A stretch of 64,000 nt of DNA from Sabellastarte sp. h YS-2021 (Eukaryota > Annelida > Polychaeta > Sabellida > Sabellidae), in assembly GCA_964017235.1 (NCBI GenBank), contig OZ024933.1, positions 91,975,432 through 92,039,431 of the forward strand. Reading direction: 5' to 3'. The translations under genes and the position numbers were made by a program. Under the pieces are notes generated by a model that did not search any database, was not told the DNA's origin, and saw only the letters and a list, made by a program, of their open reading frames with translations. Positions 42,086-63,710 of the stretch are shown here, piece after piece; within the stretch, counting starts at the first letter, position 1; the number at the start of each line of letters is the position of its first letter.

Positions 42086-42471
42086 TTATTTGGAAAATTC
42101 GTAATGATTAATTAATCATTAATTACTCGGCCATTTCTTGACCAATCAATGCCAAAATCTAATGATTTCCAGATTTTAATAGAATGAATGTATTTGCCAA
42201 GTTTCAGGTGAATTGATAAAATTCCTTTCAAGTTATCATCCGGACAAGCTTCCCCATCGAAAAAAGACATTTTTGGTCATGTGACCTCTCTGATTGGTTG
42301 AAATGTCACTGCAGCATATTCAAAAAAATTCCCCAAGGCTACTGCCTAAACCTGCCAAATTTGAAAAGAATCCGCCTAACGGTTACAGAGTTATAAGGAA
42401 AACAAAATGCGGAGCCGGCGGAGCCTGAAGCTCTCCCATACACAAACAAGCGTCCCTTGCGGGACGCTTAA
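42086..42471 (-). other. 5' terminal region of the 7.2-kb element
   Basis: Unique sequence between the satellite core and the terminus, ending in the AAGCGTCCC palindrome. It includes AATGATTAATTAATCATTAA (a palindrome at about 42102-42124) and GCGGAGCCGGCGGAGCC near 42410. No coding frame. Confidence 0.6.
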
Positions 42472-44390: not shown

Positions 44391-45530
44391 AGAGGTGGGT
44401 GGGGGGAATCCGGGTGGGGGATGTGGGTTGAGCATAAATGGTAAACAAACAATCTATATAAAAGGGGTACTCAAATACAAAAAGAATTGAGAATTTTAAG
44501 TATGTGATTATCAACTGAAATGAGTTCATAACTGTAGGAGCTGTGCCAAAATTAACTGAGGCAAGTTGAATAAAACTGGGCTAGTTGAGGGTTAAAAATG
44601 CCCTAGTTTTACTACATAAGGATATAATTTCATTAATATTGGGACTTAAAGCTCACTTAAAGTGTCCATTTTGTCTACTTCAATATGTTTCACCAGTTTC
44701 ATTTTAAAAAGTGAAAAACTCAGCAAGCAGAGGTGGGTGGGGGGAATCCGGGTGGGGGATGTGGGTTGGGACTTAGTTTAGTTTATTAGTTTATTATAGT
44801 GACATGTATTATGTTGACAAGGATTATGCAAAAACTATTGAAGTAATACCCAGCCCTATATGGGCTTATAAGTCACTTTAAATAGAGAGTTAATAACAAA
44901 CAGAGCAAACATATTTTGAGGTAAGATACAGTAAATAAAGACAGCAATTCAATACATAAAAATTAACAATATAATTTACTTTTTCTTTCTTGCCACAAAT
45001 CAAAAATAAAATTAATAACCATATTGACATTCATATGAGTTAATACCCTTGATAATTGATCTATTAATAATTCAGATTTATCTATATTTAAAATTTTGAA
45101 ATATTTCATACGAATCAGCTCTAAAGCTGGACAAACACAAACAAAATGTATCTCATCTTCTACATCTTTTTTACACAGTTTACATGTTCTCTCAAAGATA
45201 TGGAGTGCTACAGCAAAAATGGTAAACAAACAATCTATATAAAAGGGGTACTCAAATACAAAAAGAATTGAGAATTTTAAGTATGTGATTATCAACTGAA
45301 ATGAGTTCATAACTGTAGGAGCTGTGTCAAAATTAACTGAGGCAAGTTGAATAAAACTGGGCTAGTTGAGGGTTAAAAATCCCCTAGTTTTACTACATAC
45401 GGATATAATTTCATTAATATTGGGACTTAAAGCTCACTTAAAGTGTCCATTTTGTCTACTTGAATATGTTTAACCGGCGTTTAACCAGTTTCATTTTAAA
45501 AAGTTAAAAACTCAGCAAGCAGAGGTATAA
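44391..45530. repeat. 338-bp tandem duplication with a LINE scrap inside
   Basis: 44391-44728 (starting CAGAGGTGGGTGGGGGGAAT) is repeated from 44729. In the second copy the link between GATGTGGGTTG and AAATGGTAAACAAAC is replaced by about 475 bp holding a LINE fragment, after which the duplicate runs on to about 45530. Copy 2 of the element has one unit only. Confidence 0.75.
44770..45219 (-). pseudogene. LINE RT C-terminal fragment
   Basis: The minus strand reads HIFERTCKLCKKDVEDEIHF then VCVCPALELIRMKYF, with the CxxC...H...C zinc-binding pattern found after the RT of many LINEs (zf-RVT type), followed by about 60 residues and a stop at 44963. Only this C-terminal part is present, as in a 5'-truncated insertion. 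The upstream residues of the open frame belong to the flanking element. Confidence 0.65.
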
Positions 45531-45599
45531 CACACAAAAATAAGTTCTTAAAAGACTAAGATAGCCATAACATTATTAATATTCAAAATTTAAATAGAC

Positions 45600-47470
45600 A
45601 GGCATTTCCTTTTAAAAATTCAAAGATTTCAGCTCTATAACCCACATAGTTTGACAGTTACTGGGCTTTAAAGTGGCATAATGTCCATAAATTGGGTTTC
45701 TGTGGGAATTTTACAATTGTTAGAGACCTTAGCAATTAAACTACAGATCTGAAACTTTTTGGGGGACATACATAACAAACAAAAATTATATATAATACAG
45801 TTTAAGACTTGTCACACTAAGCATTTCCAAATAACAGGGCAAAATACGGAAAAAATGTCCAAAAAGGCACTTGGGCGAGTGTCTATGGCCCTCATACACA
45901 GGTTAAATGTCTACTAAAAACCTTGATTTTCGCCATATGTAAAAAGGACATAATAATGCATTCCCAGATGGGATTTCAGCTCCATCAATCACATAGTTTA
46001 ACAGTCACAGGGCTTAAAGGTGGCAAAAAGTCCAAATATTGGGTCTCTGTGGGCCTTTTAGAGATCTCGATGTGGCTTTCAAATTAAAGCTTCAGACTTA
46101 AAATTTGTTACATACTAAGATTACACATAGAATATGTATCTAATAAAGTTTGAAACTTCTCAGACTTACCATTTCCAAGTTACAGAGCAAAATATGTGAA
46201 AAATGTCTTAAAAGGGTCACTCAGGTGGGTGTTTAAGGTCCTCATACACAGGTTAAATGTCTACTTGAAGCCTTGATTTTTGGCACATGTAAAAAGAACA
46301 TAATAATGTATTCCCAGATGAGATTTCAGCTCTATCAGTCACATAGTTTAACAGTCAAAGGCCTTAAAATTGGCAAAAAGTCCAAATACTGGGTCTTTAT
46401 GGGGCCTTCTAGAGACCTAAATGTGGCCTTCAAATTAAAGCTTCAGACTTAAAATTTGTCACATACTAAGATTACACATAGAATATGCATCTAATACAGT
46501 TTGAAACTTCTTAGACTTACCATTTCCAAGTTACAGGGCAAAATATGTGAAAAATGTCTAAAAATGGTCACTCGGGTGGGGATTTATGGTCCTCATACAC
46601 AGGTTAAATGTCTTCTTAAAGCCTTAATTTTTGGCACATATATAAATAACATACTAATATCTTCCCAGATAGGATTTGAGCTCTATCAGTCACATAGTTT
46701 GACAGTCACAGGGCTTAAAAGTAGCAAAAAGTCCAAATATTGGGTCTTTGGGAGCCTTTTAGAGACCTCAATTTGACCTTCAAAATTAAAGCTTCAGACT
46801 TAAAATCTGTTACATACTAAGATTACACACAGAATATATATCTAATACAGTTTGAAACTTCTCAGACTTACCATTTCCAAGTTACAGGGAAAAAGATGTG
46901 AAAAATGTCTTATAAGGGTCACTCGGGTGGGTGTTTATGGTCCTGATACACAGGTTAACTGTCTATTAAAGGCCTAAATGTTGGGGCACATATAAGAAAA
47001 CACATAGATATATTCCCAGATGATATTTAACTTAGATGAGAGACATAGTTTTAAAGCTACAGTGCTTGAAAGTGGCAAAAAGTGCATAAATTGGGTCTCT
47101 GTGGGCACTTTTGAGACCTTAAGTCGACCCCTTTGGGTAAACCTACAGCCCTAAAATTTTCTACAGACAAGGATTACATATCAAAGTTATACCTAGCACA
47201 GTTTGAGACTCATCAGAATTACCACTTCCAAATTATAGGGCAAAATATGTGAAAAGTATAGCAAAAAATCCCTAAGTGGGGGTATTTATGGGCCTCAAAG
47301 ACAATTTTCTCCTCAACTTAAAGTCGTGATTTTCGGCACATGTACTAAGAACATATTAATGTGTTGTCAGGTAAAATTTCAGCCAGCTGAGCATCATAGT
47401 TTGTGACCTACAGGGCTCTAAGTGGCCAAAAGTCCAATTTCTGACCTTAAGGTGGCCATAAGTTCTTTTT
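45600..47470. repeat. 351-bp satellite core, copy 1
   Basis: AGACTTACCATTTCCAAGTT recurs at about 46163, 46514 and 46865 (351 bp apart), with diverged outer units. Each unit appears to be two related halves of about 175 bp (GTCACATAGTTTAACAGTCA half and CTTACCATTTCCAAGTTACA half). Confidence 0.85.
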
Positions 47471-47665
47471 TACTGGGAGTTCAAGGTCACCTTAAAATAG
47501 GGATCTTCCTTTGGGCACCCTTAACATGTGTACCAAGTTTGAAAAAAAAATATTAATTTGTTTTTGAGTTATCGCGTCCACAAGGAAATTTCTACGGCGG
47601 CGGCGGCGGCGGCGGCGCGACGGACCTGAATCCAATATATCCCCGACTTTCGTCTGGGGATATAA

Positions 47666-48590
47666 TAAGACAGATCCAGGTCTGATACACAAGGGAATCT
47701 ACTTGTGGCCTAGTACATATATGCAAGATATGAGAGAAATGCCTGCAATAATCAATGAGAAAATTGTGATAAAGTGTTGAAATGTTCACACTTTTGGTGG
47801 AGGTACCTCCCTTGTAATGGCTATAGCAAACAGACAGACAGATTTGCATGCCTTGAACAATTTTTCATCCTCGTTAAATAAGGTATCTTTAAAAAGACAG
47901 CATGTCTCTGGGCCTTGTACTTTTGGAGGAGAAGTTATTCAAGCGTACCTGTATGCAGACACCGCAGAGTGATGTCATAATGTTAGCTGACTGACAACTC
48001 ATCTGACATGAAAATTGCCACCCAAAAATTACAAAATATATATTTTAATCATTTACATGATGACTGTAAAACATGTATTCTAATAAAAATATATGTTGAA
48101 TTTATACCAGGATCCTATACCATTCATATACAACATATCTGACAAACATGATCAAGAGGTATGGAAACATGCCCAAAACAAACAAAAAAAATGCAAGATC
48201 CATGGTTGCAACATGCCCTAGATAAATTACTACCAGTGAATAATCAATACACAAGATTTCAGAGCAAAATTGGGAGAAAAAATGTTGAAATTTTCAAAGA
48301 AAAGTAAGTAGGCACATCAGTTTGAACAGCAATAGACATCCATTATTCATTCACTAGCAAAACTATTCGAATATCATTTGACAACAACAGATATTTGGTA
48401 CAACAAAACAGGGTTCCCATTTTCTTAAATGCATTGAAACAATTTTCAAGAAGGTGGGCAGACTATTGATCCAATACACCTAATATAAGATGCCTACATT
48501 TAACATTTGCAACCTTGGTTAAAAACTCTGCCCAGTGATTGATTATTACCCTAAAAAGTAGCTGTATCAACATTTGATAATCCGAGGTTC
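47666..48590. other. Intergenic; flank duplication next to the element
   Basis: 47670-47790 (GATCCAGGTCT...GGGAATCTACTTGTGGCCTAG...AATCAATGAGAAAA) is a diverged copy of 43209-43560 on the other side of the element, minus the 245-bp MITE. The remainder, up to the last exon of the unidentified gene, is featureless; it probably includes that gene's 3' UTR. Confidence 0.55.
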
Positions 48591-48760: not shown

Positions 48761-48892
48761 CTGCAAAAAAAAAAAAAAAAACATTTAACAAAATTAAAGT
48801 TAAATTGCATAACACTGCCAATTTTGCTTCATATTATCACCCCTAAAACCCTTGGCATGCTGCACAAAGTTTTCTGCAATCAGTTAAAAACA

Positions 48893-51800
48893 CTAGATAG
48901 GGCCAACTCGGCGCCAACATATCCCCAGACAGGTCATCACTCTTACCACAGGTTTTGATCGGGAATTTTTTATGTAAGCCATTTGTTGTATGCCATAAAT
49001 CTTGGGAAAAGTTATATGAACTTCAGCACATCAATCTACTAAATTTATATCTTCCCAAGGAAGATGGTGTATCCCCAGACGCCGAATACATAACTCAACA
49101 GAGCATATTTTCAATCTTCCTGCAATGATAACTCTGAACCTATTTTCAAAGTATTTAAATGATTGATGATTGAATGTCCATTCCAAATTAATAATCCCAA
49201 AAGAGCATATCTGTTTCTATATTTGTTGACAAATAAAATATTATTTTTAACTCAACTCATCATACTTTTCAATCTTCCTGCAAAGGGTGACTCTGAACCT
49301 ATTTTCAAAGTATTTAAATGATTCATAATCCCAAAAGCGCATATCTGTTTCTATATTTGTTCACAAATAAAATATTATTTAAAAATTATATATTATTTAT
49401 ATTATTATTTTATTATATTATTTTTAGAATTTGCATTGTTTTTCAGTTATTCATTTCCTCAATTCCTATATATGTGGTCCATATATATGCAACCTAAATA
49501 TGTGACACAATCTCAGTTCTGGCTCCCCTTTGTCTTATTAGATAATGAAGCAAACCCCATCTCCCAACCCCACCCCACCCCTCTCCCCTTCTCCACACCT
49601 CTCACTGTTACAGAAGATCTGCAACCCCACTGAAAAGTCTGGTTCTTTGTTTCTCATTTGATATCATTCAATACCTTTGTTTATTTAGTGTCACTCAATA
49701 GCTGGAGGTCCCAGAGGTGGATGGGGGGTGGGACTAAATACAGCACAAATGGTAAACAAACAAAAGGGGTAATCAAATACAAAAAGCTCAGTTAATCTTA
49801 TCACTAAAATAAAATCAAATATACAAATAAGGAATGTCCAACAGGAAAATTATATACCTCCAGAATTAAATATAAATTATCAAACCACAAGAACAGATTT
49901 ATAATAATAAGTCAGAATTGAGAATTTTAAGAATGTGATTATCAACTGAAATGAGTTAGTAACTATAGGAACTGTGTCAAAATTAACTGAGGCAAACTGA
50001 ATAAAACTGGGCTAGTTGAGGGTTAAAAATCCCCTATTTTTACTACATAAGGGTATAATTTCATTAATATTGGACTTATAGCTCACCAGAAAATAACAGT
50101 GTCCATTTTGCCTACTTGAATATGTTTAACCAGTTTCATTTTAAAAAGTTAAAAACTTAGCAAGCAGAGAGATAACACACAAAAATAAGTACTTAAAAGC
50201 CTAAGATAGCCATAACATTATTAATAAAAATTTAAATAGACAGGCACTTCCTTTGAAAAATTCAAAGATTTCAGCTCTATGACCCACATAGTTCGACAGT
50301 TACAGGGCTTTAAAGTGGTATAATATCCATAAACTGGGTCTCTGTGGGCATTTTACAATTGTTAAAGAGACCTTAGCAATTAAACTACAGAACTGAAACT
50401 TTTTGGGGGACAAACATAACAAAAAAAATTATATATAATACAGTTTAAGACTTGTCACACTAAGCATTTCCAAATAACAGGGTAAAATACGGAAAAAAAT
50501 GTCAAAAAAGGTCACTTGGGTGAGTGTTTATGGCCCTCATACACAGGTGAAATGTCTACTAAAAGCCTTGATTTTCGGCACATGTAGAAAGGACATAATA
50601 ATGCATTCCCAGATGGGATTTCAGCTCCATCAATCACATAGTTTAACAGTCACAGGGCTTAAAGGTGGCAAAAAGTCCAAATATTGGGTCTCTGTGGGCC
50701 TTTTAGAGATCTCGATGTGGCCTTCAAATTAAAGCTTCAGATTTATAATCTGTCACATACTAAGATTATACATAGAATATATATCTAATAAAGTTTGAAA
50801 CTTCTCAGACTTACCATTTCCAAGTTACAGAGCAAAATATGTGAAAAATGTCTTAAAACGGTCACTCGGGTGGGTGTTTATGGTCCTCATACACAGTTTA
50901 AATGTCTACTTGAAGCCATGATTTTTGGCACATGTAAAAAGAACATAATAATGTATTCCCAGATGAGATTTCAGCCCTATCAGTCACATAGTTTAACAGT
51001 CACAGGGCTTAAAGGTGGCAAAAAGTCCAAATACTGGGTCTTTGGGAGTCCATCAGAGACCTCAATGTGGCCTTCAAATTAAAGCTTCAGACTTAAAATT
51101 TGTCACATACTAAGATTACACATAGAATATGTATCTAATACAGTTTGAAACTTCTCAGACTTACCATTTCCAAGTTACAGAGCAAAATATGTGAAAAATG
51201 TCTAAAAAGGGTCACTCGGGTGGGGATTTATGGTCCTCATACATGGGTTAAATGTCTATTAAAGGCCTAAATTTTGGAGTACATACAAGAAAAACATATT
51301 GATATATTCTCAGATGATATTTGAGAGACATTAGATGAGAGACATTGTTTGAAAGCTACAGTGCTTGAAGGTGGCAAGAAGTCCATAAATTGGGTCTCTG
51401 TGGGCAATTTTGAGACCTCAAGTCGGCCTAACAGGTAAACCTACAGCCTTTAAATTTTTCACAGACAAGGATTACATATAAGAGTTACACCTAGAGCAGT
51501 TTGAGACTCATCAGAATTACCACTTCCAAATTATAGGGCAAAATATGTTAAAAATCTAGGAAAAAAGTCCTAAGTGGGGTCTTTATGGGCCCCAAACACA
51601 ATTTTCTCCTCAACTTAAAGTCTTGATTTTCGGCACATGTACTAAGAATATATTAATGTGTTCTCAGGTAAAATTTAAGCCAGATACGCCTCATAGTTTG
51701 TGACCTAGAGGGCTCTAAGTGGTCAAAAGTGCAATTTCTGACCTTAAGGTGGCCATAAGTTCTTTATTATTTGGAGTTTAAGGTCACCTTAAAATAGGGA

Positions 51801-51955
51801 TCTTCCTTTGGGCATCCTTAACATGTGTACCAAGTTTGAAAAAAAATATTAATTGGTTTTTGAGTTATCGCGTCCACAAGGAAATTTCTACGGCGGCGGC
51901 GGCGGCGCGACGGACCTGAATCCAATATATCCCCGACTTTCGTCTGGGGATATAA
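48893..51955 (-). mobile_element. Helitron-like satellite element, copy 2, intronic
   Basis: Second copy of the 43608-47665 family, same orientation: start palindrome at about 51927-51953, (CGG)n at 51892-51906, 351-bp core, inverted start copy at 48919-48930, GGCGCC hairpin region and CTAG at 48893-48896. It lacks the 338-bp duplication and LINE scrap of copy 1. It lies in the intron of the unidentified gene. Confidence 0.72.
50180..51800. repeat. About 350-bp satellite core, copy 2
   Basis: AGACTTACCATTTCCAAGTT at about 50809 and 51158, with diverged units on both sides (CTAAGCATTTCCAAATAACA at 50460, GAATTACCACTTCCAAATTA at 51512). Same dimeric unit as in copy 1. Confidence 0.85.
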
Positions 51956-53303
51956 TTAAACAGCCTTCAAGCTGTTAACAACATAGACAACTTTTATGTG
52001 TAAAATTATGCACATGTTGCAGTCTATTTCATCAATTTTCGTTTGGTATGGCCAGAACAATTGATCACTAACATTTTGATATGAGAATCTTTGTAGTATT
52101 TCTGCAACTATTTCATATTTAACTAAGACTGAACAACAGGGCAGGTATACAGAAAAAATTCCAAACTCCATTGCAATCTCAAATATAATTCCTGAATGTA
52201 GCTTTTAAACCCTAACTTTGAAATTAAACTCAAGGTCAAACTCAAATTTGAGTTAAAACTCAAACTCAAATATAATGCTTATTCTCAAGTGACTATACAC
52301 CTAAGGTCAGGTTCAAAATCCTGTGTGCTCCCTATAGTTATTGATTACGTTTATGTTTGCATGAAAGGGGTATTAAATGTTTGAGATGACGGCTGGAGTA
52401 ATTTTGTTTGACCATGTTTTTTATTTGAGATTGAATATACACTACGTAGGTAAAATTTCAGCAGAAAATGCTAAGTTTGAGTTTATACTCTGTAGGATTG
52501 ACTTTTGTGAGTCTTGACTTTGAGCTTTAGTTTGAGATGTTTTTATGTATATCAGCCCAGAAAAATCAAGTCGAGTTTTAACCTTATTTTCACAAAGTAA
52601 TTATATTCAACATAAAGGCAAATATGTTGATTGCCCAAATGTTTACTTGTATTGGTCAAGTTTAAAATTAGGTTAATCGAAATATACATTTAGAGTTACT
52701 ATTTTTGAAATTGCACAATGATTTCCCATGATAAAGTGCATCTTAACAAAGTTAGTATACTGTGATTGGTATTCATAAAAAATTTCGAACTCAAACTCAG
52801 ACTAAAACTCAATCACAGTCTCAAACTCAACCTAATGTAAGTATAAACTCAAGTGAAATTCTACCTAAGTAGCATATGCTCAAATTCAAATTAAAAACAT
52901 AGTCACACAAAGTTTAAAAATTTAAAAGCATAAAACATTTGAGCCTAATTGTAAGTACATACTTACACAAAAATAGTCACTATATTTGAGTTCGAGTTTA
53001 AACTTAAATTTGAGTTTAAGTTTAAACTCCATTTTAGGATTTAAACTCTAAATTACAGGGATTATTACCTCTGTAAAGGAGGCATTAAATTCATGACCAT
53101 TTATTTATCTGTCCGTTTGTCTGTTTTTGTTTGTTAGTGGGAAATAAGTTCCGGTATAGACTATACATTGAGTTTAAGAATTTTTTTTGTGAATACCAAT
53201 CATGGTCTGATAAATAACTAATAAGTTCAACTTAACTCATATATAGTTTGTATATTCTTCTAGGTAAAATAAAGAAATTGTGGCTCTCTACTGTATCACC
53301 TAC
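51956..53303. other. Intron remainder, rich in AACTCA/TGAGTT motifs
   Basis: Between the Helitron-like element and the penultimate exon. 52190-53050 contains dozens of AACTCAAA and TTTGAGTT words on both strands (for example CTCAAACTCAAATTTGAGTT-like stretches near 52225-52270 and 52985-53040). No exon seen. Confidence 0.5.
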
Positions 53304-53567: not shown

Positions 53568-53747
53568 TGGGAGGTAACGCATCGGCGATACGGGCTTCAG
53601 TGCACCTCTCGTGAAAGCTATTCTTGTTTTACACATGGCGAATTTTGATTGGACGAGCAGTTGACCTCTAGAATCGTGGGGTCACATCCTTTCTTAGTTC
53701 ATTCGACATTGCAAAGTTAAAAGGGCAACATGTTTTAGAAAGATTTT
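53568..53747 (+). repeat. E4 repeat A1
   Basis: Direct repeat of 62377-62556; both hold GCATCGGCGATACGGGCTTC and TGATTGGACGAGCAGTTGAC. Only two mismatches were seen (T/C near the start, A/G in CTCTCRTGAAAG). Confidence 0.93.
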
Positions 53748-54070
53748 TACTGGACTACAAACTTATATTTTAGATGAAGTGTTTTTTATTGCCCCCAATG
53801 TCGGATAGTCACAGTTGTTAGTCCACTGTTTTGTGATTGCTGTGTCGACCTGTCTTCTGATACCTACCTGATGGTTATGTAGCACTAGATCCACGGAGGC
53901 GGATTGTGCTTTAAACAACGCGAGTTCTGCTCTGGGATAACTGGGGCCACGTGTACAGGGATGAGTTCTCTTTAATTTCATATTTTAACCAATTTATTTA
54001 CGTGAATATAGGGTTATAGATTTAATTTCGAGAGCTCATACTGTGCAGGGACACGTATTGTTGGGTATGC

Positions 54071-54586
54071 ATGTGTCCGTCCGTCGGTGGAGCCGTTCAA
54101 ACTGACACTAAACATGATACTATAAAACAGATAAAAAGTGGTTCAGGTAACAAGGTTCACAGCCCAGTTACACAATTCTCTGTCATGTTTAAAAATGTCA
54201 AAAATGGCAAATATTGTTCACCGGCAAAGTCAGTCTCAGAGGTTAACAGGGCAGAAGCAACTGTCAAGTGTTTTAACCGGTTCCAACCCCTTGAGGATTG
54301 CATAGACACTGATAGGTCAACGTCAGAACAAGACCTCAGTCAGAAAGGTCATGAGGTAGACCATCCTAGAGAGATCAAAACTAGTAGATCACATCTTACA
54401 AACAACCAACATAGGGGTAGTTCCACTGATCTGGAAACATTGTTGCATGTCCCGGACGACAAGTATGACCTGGCAAGTAAGTCAGAAACAAAAATAAACA
54501 AAAAATGCAATGGCAAAAAGCAACTCTACCTTTCAAAAATGGAACCAGCAGAATGTGGAAAAGTTTGGCTTCACCCCTTTGAATGA
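54071..54586 (+). CDS. Small hydrophilic ORF upstream of E4 RT
   Basis: 171 codons from the ATG at 54071, overlapping the RT ORF by 77 bases in another frame. The product is charged and rich in Ser, Lys and Asp, with no zinc knuckle, no membrane segment and no gag-type helix that I can see. It occupies the place of gag in E1 and E3. It could be a reduced ORF1 or a chance frame; a proper gag is absent. Confidence 0.35.
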   Translation: MCPSVGGAVQTDTKHDTIKQIKSGSGNKVHSPVTQFSVMFKNVKNGKYCSPAKSVSEVNRAEATVKCFNRFQPLEDCIDTDRSTSEQDLSQKGHEVDHPREIKTSRSHLTNNQHRGSSTDLETLLHVPDDKYDLASKSETKINKKCNGKKQLYLSKMEPAECGKVWLHPFE

Positions 54587-55643
54587 CTTACTTATACCCC
54601 AGATAGACAAGAGTATTGATAAGGGCACTGACCCAATTGAGCTTTATAATTGGGCAAAATCTAACCAAGGTTATAACTTTATAACAGGTCAATATGTGGT
54701 CCCCTCCCAGCTGAACTTCAAAGTCTGGGCTAATCTGTTGGGAGATTATTGGGACAAGCAACTCCCATACTTGGTAAAATACGGTTTTCCCCTTGATTTT
54801 GATCACAATACCAGTCTTCAAGCAAATGTAAGAAATCATAACTCGGCGAATGCATTTCCTCATGATGTTAGAGCCTATCTGCAAGAAGAGATTGAACTTG
54901 GGGCCATACAGGGCCCATTTAAAGACCCCCCTTTGAATAAGTTTCATATATCACCCTTTATGACAAGGGAGAAGCCGGGTGCCCCACATAGGCGGGTCAT
55001 CATTGATCTGAGTTTCCCAAAGGGTGGAGCAGTAAATTCTAACATAAGTAAAGACTCATATCTGGGCACCGAATTCGTTCTTACCTTACCTTCAATAGAT
55101 CTCATTACAGATAAGGTCAAAAAATTCGGAAAAGGTTCAAAATTGTTCAAAATTGACATTAAACGAGCGTTTAGACATGTTAGGATTGATCCAAGGGACT
55201 ATTGTCTCCTAGGACTACAGCATAATGATTACTTTCTCGATACTTGTCTTCCTTTTGGTTACAGACACGGATCTGGAATCTTTCAGAGACTTACAGATGC
55301 AGTTAGATTCATTATGAGGAAGCGAGGTTATGACGTCATAAATTATATTGACGATGTCATTGGGTTTGGCACAGTTTCAACTGCAAATCCGGCTTTTCAG
55401 TGTCCATATCAACTATTAGAAAATTTAGGCTTTGAAATCAGTAAAACCAAATTGGTGGCTCCCACGACAAAAGTCACATGCCTAGGGGTCTCGATTAATA
55501 CAGAAGATTTCACAGTCTCAGTTCCTTCTGAAAAATTGCAAAATATTTCTCACCTGTGCCAAAAATGGGCATCTAAAAATGGTGCACCAAGAAACAACTT
55601 CAATCTTTATTGGGCAGTTTACTTTACATTTCAAAATGTGTAA
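54510..55643 (+). CDS. Reverse transcriptase of E4
   Basis: 377 codons. An N-terminal extension with PSQLNFKVWANLLGDYWD is followed by the RT core: EIELGAIQGPF, NKFHISPFMTRE, HRRVIIDLSFPKGG, FKIDIKRAFRHVRID (first catalytic Asp), DTCLPFGYRHGSGIFQRLTD, NYIDDVIGFG (catalytic DD pair) and KVTCLGVSINTEDF. It copies element RNA into cDNA. The frame should run into the thumb and RNase H, but after NNF a single missing base (about 55600) shifts it, and it ends as NLYWAVYFTFQNV at 55643 while the other frame continues SLLGSLLYISKC. Very likely a disabling 1-base deletion: no canonical slippery heptamer is there. Confidence 0.92.
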   Translation: MAKSNSTFQKWNQQNVEKFGFTPLNDLLIPQIDKSIDKGTDPIELYNWAKSNQGYNFITGQYVVPSQLNFKVWANLLGDYWDKQLPYLVKYGFPLDFDHNTSLQANVRNHNSANAFPHDVRAYLQEEIELGAIQGPFKDPPLNKFHISPFMTREKPGAPHRRVIIDLSFPKGGAVNSNISKDSYLGTEFVLTLPSIDLITDKVKKFGKGSKLFKIDIKRAFRHVRIDPRDYCLLGLQHNDYFLDTCLPFGYRHGSGIFQRLTDAVRFIMRKRGYDVINYIDDVIGFGTVSTANPAFQCPYQLLENLGFEISKTKLVAPTTKVTCLGVSINTEDFTVSVPSEKLQNISHLCQKWASKNGAPRNNFNLYWAVYFTFQNV

Positions 55644-56215
55644 GACAATCACGTTTCTTCCTAAATCGCATGTTGGAATTACTTCGAGCCCATTTCGGTC
55701 AAGGAAAAATACAATTAACGGATGATTTTCATCGTGATTTAAATTGGTTTCTCAAATTTTTACCTACATTTAATGGGGTTTCTTTCTTTAAACATGTATC
55801 AATACAAGCGACTATTGAATTGGATGCCTGTCTTCAAGGTTTGGGCGCAGTTTGCAATAATCAAATATATGCAATAAAAATTCCACCAAATTTTCAAAAT
55901 TACACAATAGTTCACTTGGAAATGCTCAATGTGTTAGTCGCAGTGAGGTTGTGGAGGTATTACTGGAAACAAAAGAGTATACTAATAAAATGTGATAACC
56001 AAGCTGTTGTTTCGGTCCTAACCTCTGGTAGGACTCAAGACAGGATCCTGGCTGCAATAGCCAGGAATATATTACTGGAATTGGCTGTATGCGATATCGA
56101 ACTCAAGGTCATTCACGTGTTGGGTAAAGATAATCCCATAGCAGATCTCTTATCCAGATGGTTTATCACAGCCAATCCTCATCAAAAATTAAAAAAACTT
56201 CCTAAGTTGCCCTGA
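55610..56215 (+). CDS. RT thumb and RNase H of E4
   Basis: It starts in the RT thumb (SLLYISKCVRQSRFFLNRML) and continues into an RNase H domain: IELDACLQGLGAV (first Asp), IVHLEMLNVLVAVRLW (Glu), LIKCDNQAVVSVL (Asp) and VLGKDNPIADLLSRW (last Asp), so the D-E-D-D set is complete. It removes template RNA during reverse transcription. In an intact element it is fused to the RT; the ATG at 55610 is merely the first in the shifted frame. It ends 36 bp before the recombinase ATG. Confidence 0.9.
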   Translation: MGSLLYISKCVRQSRFFLNRMLELLRAHFGQGKIQLTDDFHRDLNWFLKFLPTFNGVSFFKHVSIQATIELDACLQGLGAVCNNQIYAIKIPPNFQNYTIVHLEMLNVLVAVRLWRYYWKQKSILIKCDNQAVVSVLTSGRTQDRILAAIARNILLELAVCDIELKVIHVLGKDNPIADLLSRWFITANPHQKLKKLPKLP

Positions 56216-56251
56216 GTGGCTCCACCCACACCCCAATATTACTGACATTAA

Positions 56252-57265
56252 TTGGTTTATATAACAGGTGTTCCAAGGACAGTGAGACAGTTGGCGATAC
56301 GAGCTGGACAACGGACTAGGTCGGCCTTCAGACCAGCTACCCAGGCCTCATATAGACAAAAATTTAGACTATTCTTAGCTTTTTGCTGTTTCACAAAAAT
56401 CGAGTTGTCCAGTCTCACTCCAGTGGTGGTTCTTTCTTTCCTGGAATTTTTGTATGAGAATAAAGTCTCACCGTCAGCCATTGCTAATCATATTTCGGCA
56501 ATTAAAGCTAGCTTAGCCTTGCATGGTCTTTCAACACACTCATTTCAGGATCAAAGGGTAGCTTATTTTCAAAGGTCCCTGGCCCTGAACCAAAAATTTG
56601 CTTCTACTATCAAAAAAGTCATTGACATTGAATTATTGCACAAAATTGTCCAAATTTGTGACTCTATGTGGATGGGCCAGGTTTATAAGGCAGTTTATCT
56701 CACAGCCTTCTTCTCCTTTCTAAGAGTTTCAAACTTAGTACCACATGCTGAAAAATCATTTTCCCCTGCTGAACAGTTGGCAAAGGGTGACGTTATTACC
56801 TCCTCGGATGCTGTGTTTTTGATCATTAAGTGGTCTAAGACCATGCAGACCAGAGATTCGGTTAAGATCATCAAACTTCCAAACTTGCTCCAATCTCCAA
56901 TCTGCCCAGTCAGGGCCATCAATAATATGTTAATCTTAGCTCCAGGCCAAGAAAACCACCCTTTATTTCAAGTCAAAAACGAAAACGGCAAATGGGTGCC
57001 ACTCACCGATACAAGACTTAGACATAATTTTGCCCAAATCCTTTCAAGGCTGGGTCTTCAGACCTCAGGTATCTCTCTCCACACCTTCAGGCGTTCAGGT
57101 GCCACTTTGGCTTTCAATTCAAATGTCGCTATTCAAAACATTCAGAGCCATGGCACCTGGACGTCTGATTGTGTTTGGAGATATATAGTCCAGGACCAGA
57201 CGGCCTCCCAGCAGGTGGCTGATACTTTTCAAAGACTACTGGCTACTCCCCCTACTACAAGTTAG
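56252..57265 (+). CDS. Tyrosine recombinase of E4, apparently intact
   Basis: 337 codons. N-terminal SAM-like core-binding domain (RSAFRPATQASYRQKFRLFL; VVLSFLEFLYENKVSPSAIA), then the catalytic lobe: FFSFLRVSNLVPH (first Arg), FLIIKWSKTMQTRDS (Lys region), SLHTFRRSGATLAF (HxxR) and SHGTWTSDCVWRYIVQ (His/Trp position and nucleophilic Tyr). It would integrate circular cDNA by site-specific recombination without target duplication. No stop or shift; the length is normal for the family. The only fully open retroelement gene in the window. Confidence 0.93.
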   Translation: MVYITGVPRTVRQLAIRAGQRTRSAFRPATQASYRQKFRLFLAFCCFTKIELSSLTPVVVLSFLEFLYENKVSPSAIANHISAIKASLALHGLSTHSFQDQRVAYFQRSLALNQKFASTIKKVIDIELLHKIVQICDSMWMGQVYKAVYLTAFFSFLRVSNLVPHAEKSFSPAEQLAKGDVITSSDAVFLIIKWSKTMQTRDSVKIIKLPNLLQSPICPVRAINNMLILAPGQENHPLFQVKNENGKWVPLTDTRLRHNFAQILSRLGLQTSGISLHTFRRSGATLAFNSNVAIQNIQSHGTWTSDCVWRYIVQDQTASQQVADTFQRLLATPPTTS

Positions 57266-57273
57266 CTGGGGTT

Positions 57274-57600
57274 TGGTCGAGGTTTGCATCTACCTCAATC
57301 TAGTCGGTAAAATACCGGTAATAATAACGGTAATCAATAAAGGTCACCCTATCTTAAACCATTTTAATGTCTTCATATACATACTTTCACATGGCTACCT
57401 TAAAGTCAGTAAATCTCATTTTAAGATAACCTTAAAGTGTTCTTATCAACCTTAATTGAAATGTCTCCAACTTAATGCGACAGTAAATTAAGGTAGCATT
57501 ATATATACTTAAAGTCACATTTACTTTAAGCTGACCTTATCTAGATATACATATACATGTAACTAAAGATGCTTTTAGTATTGTAACAAAAGAAGTAGAA
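57274..57600 (+). repeat. E4 repeat B1, left part
   Basis: Nine bases after the recombinase stop. It matches 63308-63634 with two substitutions; the rest of B1 is at 62300-62376, beyond the inserted satellite element. Confidence 0.93.
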
Positions 57601-57785
57601 CAAGCATTCTGACGCATGCATTTATCTCCCGCCATATAAATTAGATGTACTAAAGATAACATATTTTAACAAGGTGCTCTAAATGTAATACTTTTCAAGT
57701 TATATTTGATTTAGTGCATGATTTCATGAATTTTAATGGATTAAAAATTATTTAAAAAATTCATTAAAAAAATTTAGCATGTGAA

Positions 57786-59420
57786 AGCTCTCCAAAATGT
57801 AGGTGAATGAGTTATTTGAGAAATATTGGCTATCTGCACTACGTTTAGTGATAATAGGCAGTTACTCATTTTGAGTAGGTGAGTAATTAGCTACGGATCT
57901 GAAAATTCACTAATTGAAAGCTCTCCAAAATGTATGTGAATGAGTTATTTCAGAAATACTGGCTATCTGCAATACTTGTAGAGATAATTCTCATTTACTC
58001 ATTTTGAGGAGGTGAATAATTAGCTACGGCTCTGAAAATTCACCAAGTGAAAGCTCTCCCAAAAGTAGGTGAATGAGTTATTTGATAAAAATTGGCTATC
58101 TGCAATACTTTTAGAGATAATTCACATTTACTCATTTTCAGTAGGTGAGTAATTAGCTACGGGTCTGGAACTTCACCATGTGAAAGCCCTCCCAAAAGTC
58201 GATGAATGAGTTATTTGATAAACATTGGATATCTGCAATACTTTTAGAGATAATTCACATTTACTCATTTTGAGTAGGTGAATAATTAGCTACGGGTCTG
58301 AAACCTCACCAAGTAAAAGCTCTCCCAAAAGTAGGTGAATGAGTTATTTGAGAAAAATTGGATATCTGCAATACTTTTACAGATAATTCACATTTACTCA
58401 TTTTCAGTAGGTGAGTAATTAGCTACGGGTCTGGAACTTCACCATGTGAAAGCCCTCCCAAAAGTCGATGAATGAGTTATTTGATAAAAATTGGATATCT
58501 GCAATACTTTTAGAGATAATTCACATTTACTCATTTTGAGTAGGTGAATAATTAGCTACGGGTCTGAAACCTCACCAAGTAAAAGCTCTCCCAAAAGTAG
58601 GTGAATGAGTTATTTGAGAAAAATTGGATATCTGCAATACTTTTACAGATAATTCACATTTACTCATTTTGAGTAGGTGAGTAATTAGCTACGGGTCTGG
58701 AACTTCACCATGTGAAAGCTCTCCCAAAAGTAGATGAACGAGTAATTTGATAAAAATTGGATACCCGCAATACTTTTAGAGATAATTAGCAATTACTCAT
58801 TTTGAGGAGGTGAATAATTAGCTACGGCTCTGAAAATTCACCAAGTGAAAGCTCTCCCAAAAGTAGGTGAATGAGTTATTTGATAAAAATTGGCTATCTG
58901 CAATACTTTTAGAGATAATTCACATTTACTCATTTTCAGTAGGTGAGTAATTAGCTACGGGTCTGGAACTTCACCATGTGAAAGCTCTCCCAAAAGTAGA
59001 TGAATGAGTTATTTGATAAAAATTGGATATCCACAATACTTTTAGAGATAATTAGCATTTACTCATTTTGAGTAGGTGAATAATTAGCTACGGGTCTGAA
59101 ACTTCACCAAGTGAAAGCTCTTCCAAAAGTAGGTGAATGAGTTATTTAAGAAAAATTGGATATCCCCAATACTTTTAGGGATAATTCACATTTACTCATT
59201 TTGAGTAGGTGAGTAATTAGCTACGGGTCTGGAACTTCACCATGTGAAAGCTCTCCCAAAAGTAGATGAATGAGTTATTTGATAAAAATTGGATATCCTC
59301 AATACTTTTAGAGATAATTAGCATTTACTCATTTTGAGTAGGTGAATAATTAGCTACGGGTCTGAAACTTCACCATGTGAAAGCTCCCCCAAAAGTACAT
59401 GAAGCAGTTATTTGAGAAAA
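57786..59420. repeat. 133-bp satellite array, about 12 copies
   Basis: The same monomer as in 35770-40970 (AAAGCTCTCCCAAAAGTAGG, CAATACTTTTAGAGATAATT), with its own variants such as GCTACGGGTCT in place of GCTATGGGTCT and alternating CACCATGTGAAAG/CACCAAGTGAAAG units, suggesting a two-monomer (266-bp) higher-order unit. Confidence 0.93.
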
Positions 59421-59429
59421 ATTATGTCA

Positions 59430-62090
59430 TTATTTTGCTACAAATAAGAAAATAGCTATTACTCACTTATGGCATGCAATAGAACCCCAAACTATATGCA
59501 TTTACCCTACAGTCACAATTTCAAAGTAGGTATTACTCGGCTATCCAATGTGCAACAGGTCTGAAACTTTACTATGTGATAGGTTATTAAAAACTAGATG
59601 AATAACATATTTGAAAATATTTCCCTAACTTTAATACTTTTGAAGATATTTGACATTTACTTATGTTGTTATTTTGCTACAAATAAGAAAATAGCTATTA
59701 CTCACTTATGGCATGCAATACAACCCCAAAATATATACCATGTTATAGTTAAGGACAAAGTAGCTGAACAACATATTTGAAGAAAATGCTGTAACTGCAA
59801 TAGTTTTGGAGTTACAATGGATTTACTCAACAGTCACAATTTCAAAGTAGCTATTACTTAGCTATGCAATGTGCAACAGGTCTGAAACTTTACTATGTGA
59901 TAGCTTACAAAAAAGTAGATGAATGACATATTTGAAAAGAATTCCCTAACTTTAATACTTCTGAAGATATTTGACATTTACTTATGTCATTATTTTGCTA
60001 CTAATAAGAAAATAGCTATTACTCACTTATGGCATGCAATAGAACCCCAAACTACATGCCAGCTTATAGCTAAGGACAAAGTAGGTGAACAACATATTTT
60101 ACGAAAATATTGTAACTGCAATAGTTTTGGAGTTACAATGGCTTTACTCAACTGTAGAATTTCAAAGTAGCTATTACTCAGCTATCCAATGTGCAACAGA
60201 TCTGAAACTTTACTATGTAATAGCTTATGAAAAAGTAGATGGATAACATATTTGAAAAGAATTCCCTAACTTTAATACTTTTGAAGATATTCGAGATTTA
60301 CTTATGTCATGATTTTGCTACAAATAACAAAATAGCTATTACTCACTTATGGCATGCAATAGAACCCCAAACTATGTACCATCTTATAGCTAAGGACAAA
60401 GTAGCTGAACAACATATTTTAGGAAAATACTCTAACTGCAATAGTTTTGGAGTTACAATGGCTTTACTCAACAGTTTCAAAGTAGCTATAACTCAGCTAT
60501 CCAAGGTGCAACAGGTCTGAAACTTTACTATGTTATAGCTTACCAAAAAGTAGATGGACAACATATTTGAAAAGATTTCCCTAACTTCAATACTTTTGAA
60601 GATAATTGACATTTACTTCTTCTGTTATTTAGCTACAAATGAGAAAATAGCTATTACTCACTTATGGTAAGCAATAGAACCCCAAACTATGTACCATCTT
60701 ATAGCTAAGAACAAAGTAGCTGAACAACATATTTTAGGAAAATACTCCAATTGCAATAGTTTTGGAGTTACAATGGCTTTACTCAACAGTCAGAATTTCA
60801 AAGTAGCTATTACTCAGCTATCCAAGGTGCAACAGGTCTGAAGCTTTACTATGTCATAGCTTACCAAAAAGTAGATGGACAACATATTTGAAAAGATTTC
60901 CCTAACTTTAATATGTTTGAAGATATTTGACATTTACTTCTTTTGTTATTTAGCTACAAATGAGGAAATAGCTATTACTCACTTATGGCAAGCAATAGAA
61001 CCCCAAACTATGTACCATCTTATAGCTAAGAACAAAGTAGCTGAACAACATATTTTAGGAAAACACTCTAACTGCAATACTTTTTTAGTTACAATAGCTT
61101 TACTCAACAGTCAGAATTTCAAAGTAGCTATTACTCAGCTATCCAAGGTGCAAGAGGTCTGAAACTTTACTATGCCATAGCTTACCAAAAAGTAGATGGA
61201 CAACATATTTGAAAAGATTTCCCTAACTTTAATACTTTTGAAGATATTTGACATTTACTTCTTCTGTTATTTAGCTACAAATGAGGAAATAGCTATTACT
61301 CACTTATGGCAAGCAATAGAACCCCAAACTATGTACCATCTTATAGCTAAGAACAAAGTAGCTGAACAACATATTTTAGGAAAACACTCTAACTGCAATA
61401 CTTTGTTAGTTACAATAGCTTTACTCAACAGTCAGAATTTCAAAGTAGCTATTACTCAGCTATCCAAGGTGCAAGAGGTCTGAAACTTTACTATGCCATA
61501 GCTTACCAAAAAGTAGATGGACAACATATTTGAAAAGATTTCCCTAACTTTAATACTTTTGAAGATATTTGACATTTACTTCTTCTGTTATTTAGCTACA
61601 AATGAGAAAATAGCTATTACTCACTTATGGCAAGCAATAGAACCCCAAACTATGTACCATCTTATAGCTAAGGACAAAGTAGCTGAACAACATATTTTAG
61701 GAAAATACTCTAACTGCAATAGTTTTGGAGTTACAATCGCTTTACTCAACAGTCAGAATTTCAAAGTAGCTATTACTCAGCTATCCAAGGTGCAACAGGT
61801 CTGAAACTTTAGTATGTGATAGCTTACCAAAAAGAAGATGGACAACATATTTGAAAAGATTTCCCTAACTTCAATACTTTTGAAGATATTTGACATTTAC
61901 TTCTTCTGTTATTTAGCTACAAATGAGAAAATAGCTATTACTCACTTATGGCATGCAATGGGACCCCAAACTATGTACCATCTTATAGCTAAGGACAAAG
62001 TAGCTGAACAACATATTTGAAGAAAAAGTTGTTACTGCAATAGTTTTTGAGTTATGAGCCCTTTACTCAAAGTAGCTATGATTGCTATTA
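59430..62090. repeat. 321-bp satellite array, about 8 copies
   Basis: Exact 321-bp spacing in the right half (ATGGACAACATATTTG at 60875, 61196, 61517, 61838). Each unit is two ~160-bp halves related to the 155-bp satellite; one half (GGTCTGAAACTTTACTATGT ... AATACTTTTGAAGATATTTG) is also clearly related to the 133-bp monomer. As 321 is a multiple of 3, every unit shows a similar 60-95 codon open frame; this is periodicity, not a gene. Confidence 0.93.
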
Positions 62091-62217
62091 CTCACTTATC
62101 TTTAGGCCTAAGTCAATAAAACCAAAATTTTTTTCAAGGGCATGAAAATTCATTGGGACAATTAATTTACAAAAAATCTGTAGCTGTAGTAGTTTTGGAG
62201 AAATCTGCGTGACTAAC

Positions 62218-62251
62218 TAACGCACGCACACACGCACGCACGCACACACAG
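62218..62251. repeat. CA/CG microsatellite
   Basis: ACGCACGCACACACGCACGC and related CACACACA units, just inside the terminal hairpin of the Helitron-like element. It occupies the same relative place as the (CGG)n tracts of the 43608 and 48893 elements. Confidence 0.85.
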
Positions 62252-62299
62252 ACATCATTTCATAATCTCCCTCCCGGGCTACAGCCCGGCGGGAGATAA

Positions 62300-62376
62300 A
62301 AATAGAATAAAAATAATAAATCCCATTGGTGTCTGTTATTGTATATGTAAATTTCAAAACCAGAGTAGGGGCACTG
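62300..62376 (+). repeat. E4 repeat B1, right part
   Basis: Completes B1; matches 63635-63710 with one 1-base indel (CCCATTGG against CCCATGG). It abuts A2. Confidence 0.9.
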
Positions 62377-62556
62377 TGGGAGGTAATGCATCGGCGATAC
62401 GGGCTTCAGTGCACCTCTCATGAAAGCTATTCTTGTTTTACACATGGCGAATTTTGATTGGACGAGCAGTTGACCTCTAGAATCGTGGGGTCACATCCTT
62501 TCTTAGTTCATTCGACATTGCAAAGTTAAAAGGGCAACATGTTTTAGAAAGATTTT
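62377..62556 (+). repeat. E4 repeat A2
   Basis: Second copy of the A repeat, directly after B1; see 53568-53747. Confidence 0.93.
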
Positions 62557-63307
62557 CCTCCCACCCGCCCAACTCTCCAGGAGTAGGAGCAAGTTGCAGG
62601 AGGAGGTGGGGCTGAGACTCTAACTTAACACCCTCTTTGGCGCAGGGGAGGGGGTGAGTGTGAGGTATGTGCCCCTGGCTCGTTAACAATGGGGTTCACA
62701 GCCGACTCACTTGTTAGTTATTAGCCTTTCCTTCTCCTTGTCTCCTTGGGTCATATCACACCTCTAAGGCACCTCCTGGTCATTATTGGGGGGGTCTAAA
62801 TCTGGGGCTAAATTCGGACCACAGTCTTTGAATCGGCCTGTGCTTGAATAGTTTTCACTATAATGTATGTTTGCAGGTGGTGGATGTAGTTGGCATGACC
62901 AGATCATTAATATATATTTTAACATTTCAGGTTGTACATATCATACGTATTACTCTATCAATATTTTAGGTGTAACTTGGTATTAACAAGGTGTTTCTAG
63001 TTTCAGGTGAATGGGCCTGAAAATGGGATCGGTGAAGTGTGGCAGTCATAGGAAGTCGAGAGAACAGCCAACTTCATATTGTACATAATGTCTCGATTTC
63101 AATGAAAACATTGTAATTTAGGGGCTAGTCAAAAATGTAACCACGCCCAACTGCTTATTGTTAGGCCTAAGGGGCTGAAGGACAGTCACCTAAGGTTTGA
63201 GTCTAGATAGGCTGATCGGGACTGTTGTTTTAGACGGGACTTTATTATTCAACACTAAGCTAAGGTTTTAGTCTCTGAGCTGAGGGGCGTTGTTACCCAT
63301 GTTTTAA
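62557..63307 (+). other. A2-B2 spacer of E4
   Basis: About 750 bp without a gene between A2 and B2. E3 has a comparable spacer of about 400 bp. In textbook Ngaro elements A2 and B2 are adjacent, so the spacer may be a feature of this lineage. Confidence 0.6.
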
Positions 63308-63710
63308 TGGTCGAGGTTTGCATCTACCTCAATCTAGTCGGTAAAATACCGGTAATAATAACGGTAATCAATAAAGGTCACCCTATCTTAAACCATTTTA
63401 ATGTCTTCATATACATACTTTCACATGGCTACCTTAAAGTCAGTAAATCTCATTTTAAGATAACCTTAAAGTGTTCTTATCAACCTTAATTGAAATGTCT
63501 CCAACTTAATGTGACAGTAAATTAAGGTAGCATTATATATACTTAAAGTCACATTTACTTTAAGGTGACCTTATCTAGATATACATATACATGTAACTAA
63601 AGATGCTTTTAGTATTGTAACAAAAGAAGTAGAAAAATAGAATAAAAATAATAAATCCCATGGTGTCTGTTATTGTATATGTAAATTTCAAAACCAGAGT
63701 AGGGGCACTG
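63308..63710 (+). repeat. E4 repeat B2, unbroken
   Basis: 403 bp, from TGGTCGAGGTTTGCATC to AGTAGGGGCACTG. It carries the uninterrupted site GTAGAAAAATAGAAT at about 63629-63643 and so records the state of B1 before the satellite insertion. Confidence 0.93.

What the first reader, a model, noticed from the sequence alone, without database searches (positions are those of the whole stretch)
57601..62299. A compound satellite array moved as one unit, proven by an in-window empty site
The B1 repeat of retroelement E4 is broken by 4699 bp; its twin B2 is unbroken. Aligning them defines the insertion to within two bases. The insert is almost all satellite (12 x 133 bp, then 8 x 321 bp) yet has element-like ends: an inverted TTATCTCCCGCC terminus, a GC-rich hairpin at the 5' side and a small hairpin plus CTTG at the 3' side, in a T^T target. 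So two different satellites were dispersed together by what appears to be a Helitron2/Helentron-type mechanism, after E4 inserted. Because A1/A2 and B1/B2 are about 99% identical, the event is young.
Basis: partly seen in the sequence, partly recalled or inferred. Interest (0 to 1): 0.88.

Follow-up and report, generated by a model that had tools for sequence, protein, structure and literature searches.

The report
Satellite-carrying rolling-circle-type transposon
A block of tandem repeats that interrupts an older mobile element is itself a mobile element, one of a family with thousands of end-sequence matches in this genome, and its relatives show how such elements can land inside their own repeats and turn into new composite elements.

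Summary
Window 57601-62299 (4699 bp) splits repeat B1 of a tyrosine-recombinase retrotransposon (E4); B2 is the unbroken twin (401 identities, 2 mismatches, 1 gap). On the minus strand the insert has the anatomy of a non-autonomous Helentron (HINE): 12-bp subterminal inverted repeats, strong 5' hairpin, GT/GC-rich stretch, 321-bp array, 133-bp array, weak 3' stem, CTTG, insertion at TTD^TT without visible duplication. The genome holds 2715 exact 5' ends and 3105 3' ends (<=1 mismatch); reversed controls 0. Of 21 copies (20 fetched, all from contig C1, plus the window) all carry 321-type arrays and 19 also 133 arrays, in one order and orientation. Compound satellites do move as one unit; this kind is known (Cg_HINE, pearl). 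Corrections: the two satellites are diverged relatives; the autonomous partner was not found. Beyond the finding: the 133-bp monomer is itself an insertion site. Five of the 21 end at the 3' end of a mini-element nested in their array; locus L069 keeps the nested state with monomers on the far side. Genome-wide, 180 places match the 5' nesting junction, 38 the 3' one.

The parts
57601..62299 (-). whole insert: non-autonomous Helentron-type element (HINE), subfamily A (my label), 4699 bp
   Evidence: empty site B2; same ends in 20 fetched copies, chosen for those ends
62265..62297 (-). 5' hairpin: the 5' subterminal repeat pairs with an adjacent inverted repeat
   Evidence: DNA fold -13.9 kcal/mol, z -5.1
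62288..62299 (-). 5' subterminal inverted repeat TTATCTCCCGCC, at the very 5' end
   Evidence: with GGGC added it occurs 2715 times in the genome, reversed control 0
62220..62253 (-). GT/GC-rich simple-sequence stretch of the 5' module
   Evidence: read by eye; length varies between copies
62074..62299 (-). 5' module, 226 bp
   Evidence: present in 21 of 21 copies
59501..62054 (-). 321-bp array, 8.0 copies; each unit is a diverged dimer of about 160 bp
59423..59430 (-). 321/133 junction, shared by subfamily A
   Evidence: aligned in 9 of 9 copies
57781..59423 (-). 133-bp array, 12.4 copies; 8 monomers match the strict target pattern, all 8 with TTTTT
57601..57768 (-). 3' module, 168 bp
57622..57633 (-). 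3' subterminal inverted repeat (GGCGGGAGATAA on -)
57601..57621 (-). 3' tail: short GCAT/ATGC stem and terminal CTTG
   Evidence: 33-mer with at most 1 mismatch occurs 3105 times, control 0; fold weak
57274..57600 (+). B1 of E4, left part, ends AA at the target
62300..62376 (+). B1 of E4, right part, begins AAA
63308..63710 (+). B2 of E4 = in-window empty site
53568..53747 (+). A1 of E4
   Evidence: 178/180 to A2
62377..62556 (+). A2 of E4
54510..57265 (+). E4 reading frames: reverse transcriptase 54510-55643, RNase H 55610-56215, tyrosine-recombinase-like 56252-57265

Best explanation
The insert is a non-autonomous Helentron (HINE) whose body is almost entirely satellite arrays. Presumably Rep/helicase/endonuclease of an autonomous Helentron acts in trans: one strand is peeled from the 5' subterminal repeat/hairpin, synthesis proceeds through the arrays, stops at the 3' subterminal repeat + stem + CTTG, and the product joins at a T-rich TTD^TT site with no target duplication. 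The whole compound array is copied as one unit; copy number of each array drifts afterwards or during copying. Because the 133-bp monomer contains TTTTT, the arrays are landing pads for their own family. A mini-element landed in such an array; descendants were then mobilised from the OUTER 5' end to the INNER 3' end, losing the rest of the host, which gave chimeric subfamily B; crossing-over between the arrays on either side of a nested copy gave a 3-kb higher-order repeat. Shown here: borders, two empty sites, shared junctions, dispersal, nested and chimeric states. Inferred: rolling-circle biochemistry, partner enzyme, direction of synthesis, the order of events from nested to chimeric, crossing-over.
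For: Empty site B2. 2715/3105 ends, controls 0/0 (5, 13). Of the first 100 listed 5' ends, 45 have a same-strand 3' end downstream within 16 kb (68 of the 100 listed 3' ends entered); strand-shuffled mean 23.3, maximum 34 in 2000. 20 fetched copies, 3540-7738 bp; the printed 30-base flanks differ up to the same border base. 5' module - 321 - 133 order and orientation constant in 19 of 21 copies, the other 2 (L041, L052) having a 321-like array instead; array hits 321 about 3-12, 133 5-37. Internal junctions shared by 9/9 subfamily-A and 4/4 subfamily-C copies. In 7 of the 9 A copies 133 monomers are as alike between as within elements (0.916/0.913); best match of 321 monomers lies in another element 40/40 (85). 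Target: 3' flank T 33/33 then T 32/33; 5' flank -3 T 29/29, -2 T 26/29, -1 A13/T14/G2 (54; 29 rows hold 26 distinct flanks, one of them L002 of another family). Second empty site: 240 uninterrupted monomers read CCAATTTTT[CAG]TCAAAT, none with another T number, against CCAATTT[element]TTCTCAAAT in L048. Nesting: B junction 5/5 (57); L069 with both sides, left array 97-100% collinear with 4 of 5 B copies for about nine monomers, with L042 for four; 180 against 38 junctions, controls 0; 9 of the first 100 5' junctions have a 3' junction within 20 kb. HOR units L023=L024 3033/3033, L024/L025 2986/3033.
Against: No autonomous element with these ends was found (parts of 6 of 24 Rep loci read). The 3' stem is weak and not better than shuffles. 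The 5' repeat starts at the terminus and the 3' repeat lies 21 bp from the end, where the mite HINEs have 2-4 bp and about 38-60 bp. The 20 copies were chosen for exact end motifs and all come from C1, so end identity in them is by selection; only flanks, module order and junctions are independent of that. About half of the 45 pairs would agree in strand by chance. The 3' junction pattern misses monomers reading TTATC (57 of 240; 114), so 38 is an undercount. L069's upstream side differs from subfamily B, so it need not be the direct ancestor. For 133 monomers the excess of best matches in other elements (66 other, 13 same, 25 tie; 85) is about what the larger number of candidates would give.
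Confidence: 0.92

Rival explanations
1. A MITE-like cut-and-paste DNA transposon with a 2-bp TT target duplication and imperfect terminal repeats.
For: On sequence alone 'TT on both sides' can be read as a 2-bp duplication, because the element begins with TT; pearl elements were first described as MITEs (passages).
Against: Only the 5' repeat is terminal; the 3' copy lies 21 bp inside and is followed by a different tail. Outer-5'/inner-3' chimeras fit a 5'-to-3' copying process that stops at the first terminator better than end-pair synapsis (inference).
Confidence: 0.06
2. Satellite expansion in place: the arrays grew inside E4 or invaded B1 by recombination with satellite elsewhere, without transposition.
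For: Array lengths vary widely between copies; tandem amplification involving the arrays does occur (3049-bp units).
Against: The empty site is clean to the base; unique 5' and 3' modules and both internal junctions are shared by copies with different flanks.
Confidence: 0.02
3. Assembly error joining a satellite contig to B1.
For: Repeats are assembly-prone; read data were not available.
Against: The same element with the same ends sits at other loci with different flanks, and both E4 sides of B1 are present with exact target arithmetic.
Confidence: 0.01
4. Subfamily B arose by homologous recombination between elements, not by nesting and use of the inner 3' end.
For: Arrays offer homology; the oyster paper proposes recombination among other routes for double arrays.
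Against: The mini-element starts exactly at the family's TTT^TT target in the monomer, is complete at both ends, and L069 keeps the monomers on its far side with the left array collinear for about nine monomers in 4 of 5 copies.
Confidence: 0.12

Closest known systems
Cg_HINE elements of Crassostrea gigas (PMC7492417; abstract, sections 7, 9, part 1 of 10 and passages seen)
   Same: 5' subTIR with adjacent complementary IR, microsatellite, satellite-like arrays, 3' subTIR, palindrome, T-rich target, no TSD; two of the eleven elements carry two consecutive arrays; autonomous partner likewise not linked
   Different: Arrays here are longer (133-bp hits up to 37; oyster mostly up to 5 monomers, longest 29); compound arrays in 19 of 21 copies of this sample; one subfamily has a piece of a third satellite; nested and chimeric states are caught here, whereas the oyster paper offers recombination, junction-fragment capture or filler DNA as possible origins of double arrays
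DINE-1 / HINE and autonomous Helentrons (PMC4067079, passages seen)
   Same: subTIRs, 5' IR hairpin, 3' stem-loop, TT target, central tandem repeats
   Different: subTIR here is at the very 5' end and 21 bp from the 3' end; no partner sharing these ends found; base -1 of the target is A, T or G
pearl / CvA / DTC84 and the BIV160/Cg170 satellite superfamily of bivalves (PMC5139131 and PMC7492417, passages seen)
   Same: about 160-bp central repeats in a modular element; the 321-bp unit here is a diverged dimer of about 160 bp
   Different: sequence relation to BIV160/Cg170 not tested; species of this genome not identified
Helraiser / Helitrons (PMC4778049, passages seen)
   Same: 3' hairpin acts as a transposition terminator; new 3' ends arise naturally
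   Different: Helitron class; there new ends arise by truncation or read-through, here an inner 3' end supplied by a nested relative is used (inference)

Membership tests
HINE (non-autonomous Helentron) | identical subterminal inverted repeats of 11-15 bp near both ends | tested here: met
   TTATCTCCCGCC / GGCGGGAGATAA, 12 of 12; also in the 20 fetched copies, which were selected on these ends
HINE (non-autonomous Helentron) | inverted repeat next to the 5' subTIR, forming a hairpin | tested here: met
   z -5.1, 0 of 200 shuffles
HINE (non-autonomous Helentron) | palindrome/stem-loop near the 3' end | tested here: inconclusive
   GCAT/ATGC stem present but not better than shuffles (z -0.3; z -0.6 for the tail alone); a related 3' end has a stem of different sequence, ACCAC/GTGGT (z -1.5)
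HINE (non-autonomous Helentron) | insertion at TT in T-rich DNA, no target-site modification | tested here: met
   two empty sites; flank statistics; a 2-bp TT duplication cannot be told apart by sequence alone
HINE (non-autonomous Helentron) | microsatellite and/or central tandem repeats | tested here: met
HINE (non-autonomous Helentron) | shared ends with an autonomous Rep/helicase/endonuclease element | tested here: inconclusive
   24 Rep-domain loci in the genome (a lower bound); parts of six read, none with TTATCTCCCGCC within 2 mismatches on the Rep strand; three of these pieces do not reach their family's 5' end, and 18 loci were not examined
canonical Helitron | 5' TC, 3' CTRR, insertion between A and T | tested here: not met
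   5' TT, 3' CTTG, TTD^TT; definition from a passage of PMC4067079
E4 as tyrosine-recombinase retrotransposon with split direct repeats | A1-[RT, RNase H, YR]-B1-A2-B2 (layout recalled) | tested here: met
   for the third frame only a recombinase N-terminal (SAM-like) model passed its cut-off, the catalytic-domain model PF00589 gave no listed hit, but PF00589 is listed for several of its relatives

The most novel reading that the evidence does not exclude
Satellite arrays inside these elements are self-made landing pads: monomers offer the family's own target, relatives nest in them, and re-mobilisation from outer 5' end to inner 3' end mints new compound elements, while crossing-over between the arrays flanking a nested copy starts new higher-order satellites. 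This would be a general route to multi-satellite Helentrons and to new long satellites.
Probability: 0.5. Interest if true: 0.68.

Novelty: new member of a known kind. Interest (0 to 1): 0.5.

Why it matters
How satellites spread and how new ones begin is a long-standing question. Here one element family shows several stages at base resolution: clean insertion, dispersal of compound arrays, nesting in its own monomer, a nested state beside its chimeric relatives, and a 3-kb higher-order repeat around a nested copy. It offers a concrete candidate answer to a question left open for oyster HINEs: how one element comes to carry more than one array.

Tried and rejected
Autonomous partner: PF14214 gave 24 loci (its loci were not cut out). 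I read parts of six: L059/L064/L065, L060, L061, L062/L066/L067, L063, L068. None has TTATCTCCCGCC within 2 mismatches on the Rep strand. L060, L061 and L063 are relatives of L059 and start inside the region alike between them, so they do not reach that family's 5' end; in L064 that family probably begins at another hairpin (AGGCGGGTTG..CAACCCGCC). Two places in L067 match the 3' repeat with 2 mismatches; one is a degraded piece of the 5' module downstream of its last frame, judged an old fragment. A pattern for 3' ends with foreign upstream sequence gave 1 place, an ordinary subfamily-A copy with a short deletion; it needs the 28-base tail exact and would miss a partner with the usual upstream bases. 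Species: the YR protein search gave 365 relatives, of the 120 listed all with source 'ena' and no name, so the organism stays unidentified. Other E4 loci as further empty sites: the search never got through. Array homogenisation within elements: not seen. Own error mended: one search counted the window insert twice (248 monomers); one search gives 240. Papers: seven searches ran. The terminus letters are in no paper of the library (which cannot see figures or supplements); no paper holds all of 'Helitron', 'satellite DNA', 'nested', 'central repeats'; in two satellitome papers six chosen words (nested, composite, chimeric, junction and two phrases) gave nothing. That the nested-to-chimeric route for HINE arrays is not in print rests on these narrow searches only.
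Full report
WHAT WAS CLAIMED AND WHAT IS THERE. The coordinates check. B1 (57274-57600 + 62300-62376) with the insert set aside aligns to B2 (63308-63710) with 401 identities, 2 mismatches and 1 gap; A1/A2 differ at 2 of 180 positions. The interrupted element has RT, RNase H and recombinase-like frames between split direct repeats A1..B1-A2-B2, the layout of Ngaro/PAT-type retrotransposons (name and layout recalled). The insert holds 12.4 x 133 bp and 8.0 x 321 bp.

ANATOMY. The element reads on the minus strand. 5': TTATCTCCCGCC, which folds with the following inverted repeat into a strong hairpin (-13.9 kcal/mol, z -5.1), a GT/GC-rich simple stretch, then the 321 array, the 133 array, an AT-rich 3' module, GGCGGGAGATAA, a short GCAT/ATGC stem and CTTG. 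The 3' stem is weak (z -0.3). A related 3' end met elsewhere keeps subterminal repeat, stem and CTTG with a different stem sequence (z -1.5). The 133 and 321 monomers are related (local score 119 against at most 57 in 200 Markov shuffles), so the 'two satellites' are old relatives.

A GENOME-WIDE FAMILY. In the 1.786-Gb genome the 16-base 5' end occurs 2715 times and the 33-base 3' end, at most 1 mismatch, 3105 times; the reversed patterns 0 times. The 16-base end is shared with at least one other family (L002), so not all 2715 need be this element. Of the first 100 listed 5' ends (all on C1) 45 have a same-strand 3' end downstream within 16 kb, though only 68 of the 100 listed 3' ends were entered; with strands shuffled the mean was 23.3 and the maximum 34 in 2000 trials. 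Their lengths run from 3540 to 7738 bp and their printed flanks differ right up to the same border base. All 20, and the window, carry the 5' module, 321-type repeats and the 3' end in one orientation; 19 of the 21 also carry the 133 array after the 321 array. By structure (labels mine): subfamily A, 9 copies with the window (5'-321-133-3'); B, 5 copies; C, 4 copies; L041 and L052 carry another 321-like array instead of the 133; L040 is a variant. In A both internal junctions are shared by 9 of 9; C has its own 321/133 junction, shared by 4 of 4; B has about 140 bp between the arrays, the same in 5 of 5, of which some 70-76 bp match the window's 169-bp satellite at 75-77%. L047 and L057 have long inserts with 169-bp arrays in their 133 arrays. 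The compound array thus travels as one unit while repeat numbers drift. In seven of the nine A copies (the two interrupted ones left out) 133 monomers are no more alike within an element (0.913) than between elements (0.916), and all 40 of the 321 monomers find their best match in another element; for the 133 monomers (66 other, 13 same, 25 tie) the numbers are about what the larger choice of other elements would give. Mean K2P distances over end modules: A 0.029, B 0.011, C 0.001.

TARGET. The first base after CTTG is T in 33 of 33 distinct flanks, the second in 32 of 33. Before TTATC, position -3 is T in 29 of 29 rows, -2 in 26, -1 is A 13, T 14, G 2 (three rows repeat others: L003=L039, L006=L040, L007 and L008 share a flank; leaving 26, one of them L002). 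Near-identical subfamily-C copies differ at -1 (L048 T, L050 A, L051 G, L055 A), so that base belongs to the target. The site is TTD^TT (or one or two bases further, since the element starts with TT). B2 is one empty site. A second is the 133 monomer: 240 uninterrupted monomers in the window and the 20 copies read CCAATTTTT[CAG]TCAAAT, none with another number of T (one search gave 248 because it counted the window insert twice), against CCAATTT-element-TTCTCAAAT in L048.

NESTING AND CHIMERAS. In all 5 subfamily-B copies a complete 263-280-bp mini-element sits at exactly that monomer site, and the copy ends at the mini-element's CTTG, with five different 3' flanks. Locus L069 shows the nested state: a 267-bp mini-element, 265 of 267 identical to those of L049 and L053, between 133 monomers on both sides; four more monomers follow and, some 280 bp later, a different 3' end with its own CTTG. 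Its left array is collinear with four of the five B copies at about 97-100% for nine monomers or more (L042 for four), where other monomers are about 89-95% alike, so the insertion event is very probably shared, although L069's upstream part differs and it need not be the direct ancestor. Genome-wide 180 places carry the exact monomer-to-5'-end junction and 38 the exact 3'-end-to-monomer junction, reversed controls 0; of the first 100 of the 180, nine have a 3' junction within 20 kb (21 of the 38 entered, those in the stretch covered), three of the nine in one cluster. The 3' pattern misses the TTATC monomer variant (57 of 240), which would not account for the whole difference. In a cluster at C1:16.98-17.0 Mb, three 3' ends 3049 bp apart are each followed by a 133 array; two units are identical over 3033 bp, the next differs at 47 of 3033: a higher-order repeat around a nested copy.

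MECHANISM. Shown: precise insertion, constant ends, no detectable duplication, array transport, nested and chimeric states. Inferred: replicative rolling-circle transfer driven in trans, and the order nested-then-chimeric. A hairpin acting as terminator in Helitrons, and new 3' ends arising in nature, are reported for Helraiser (PMC4778049, passages). Using the outer 5' end with the first terminator met explains subfamily B simply. Autonomous Helentron-like elements exist here: L059 encodes Rep and PIF1 helicase domains, with a C-terminus that looks endonuclease-like by eye only (no Pfam hit there); upstream lies a different hairpin that is probably its 5' end. The partner with matching ends was not found.

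KNOWN OR NEW. The oyster Cg_HINE elements have the same plan, two of eleven with consecutive double arrays, and no linked partner either (PMC7492417, sections 7, 9 and part of 10). The window element is a new family of a known kind. What adds to the literature I could search is the set of states that show how compound elements can be built, where that paper lists recombination, junction fragments or filler DNA as possibilities.

AGE. The insert came after E4. E4's repeats differ by 2 of 403 and 2 of 180 positions, so the event is recent relative to that; without a mutation rate no years can be given. The window copy differs from the subfamily consensus at 6 of 380 positions; most of that probably predates the insertion (inference from small numbers).

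Noticed in passing
window 35685-40970: 39 copies of the 133-bp repeat on the same strand end in a second kind of 3' end (GGCGGGAGATAC, stem, CTTG at 35685) and lie between stretches of a 169-bp array; no 5' module on the other side and no TT after CTTG: looks like a truncated relative nested in another satellite.
   Followed up: partly
window 40971-43200: 169/337-bp array, then a stretch with a GC hairpin near 42450 (by eye) and a 154-bp array related to the 321-bp monomer: probably further satellite-carrying elements nested together.
   Followed up: partly
window 45264-47673 and 49914-51963: Two copies (87-89% identical) of a unit with a 350-bp array.
   Followed up: no
window 43600-44406 and 48885-49728: Duplicated 0.8-kb stretch, about 88% identical.
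   Followed up: no
G000:C1:16979579-16998000 (L023-L026, L048): Cluster with 3049-bp higher-order units, two of them identical over 3033 bp, made of a 133 array plus the element's 3' end.
   Followed up: partly
L007 and L008 (G000:C1:5613482 and 5619245): Two element 5' ends 5.8 kb apart with the same flank: probably a tandem duplication including the element.
   Followed up: no
L059, L064, L065 (G000:C3:168.66-168.68 Mb): Autonomous Helentron-like element with an open frame of over 2100 residues (2245) and probably its own 5' hairpin end; relatives at 98-99% DNA identity on C2, C11 and C4.
   Followed up: partly
window 53568-63710: E4: tyrosine-recombinase retrotransposon; its recombinase frame has a relative with 98% identity in a public record without a name (P0001).
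   Followed up: partly
L002 (G000:C1:2211953): A further family that shares the 16-base 5' end but has a different hairpin and body; only stretches of 86-92 bp match the window's 133 array at 93-97%.
   Followed up: no
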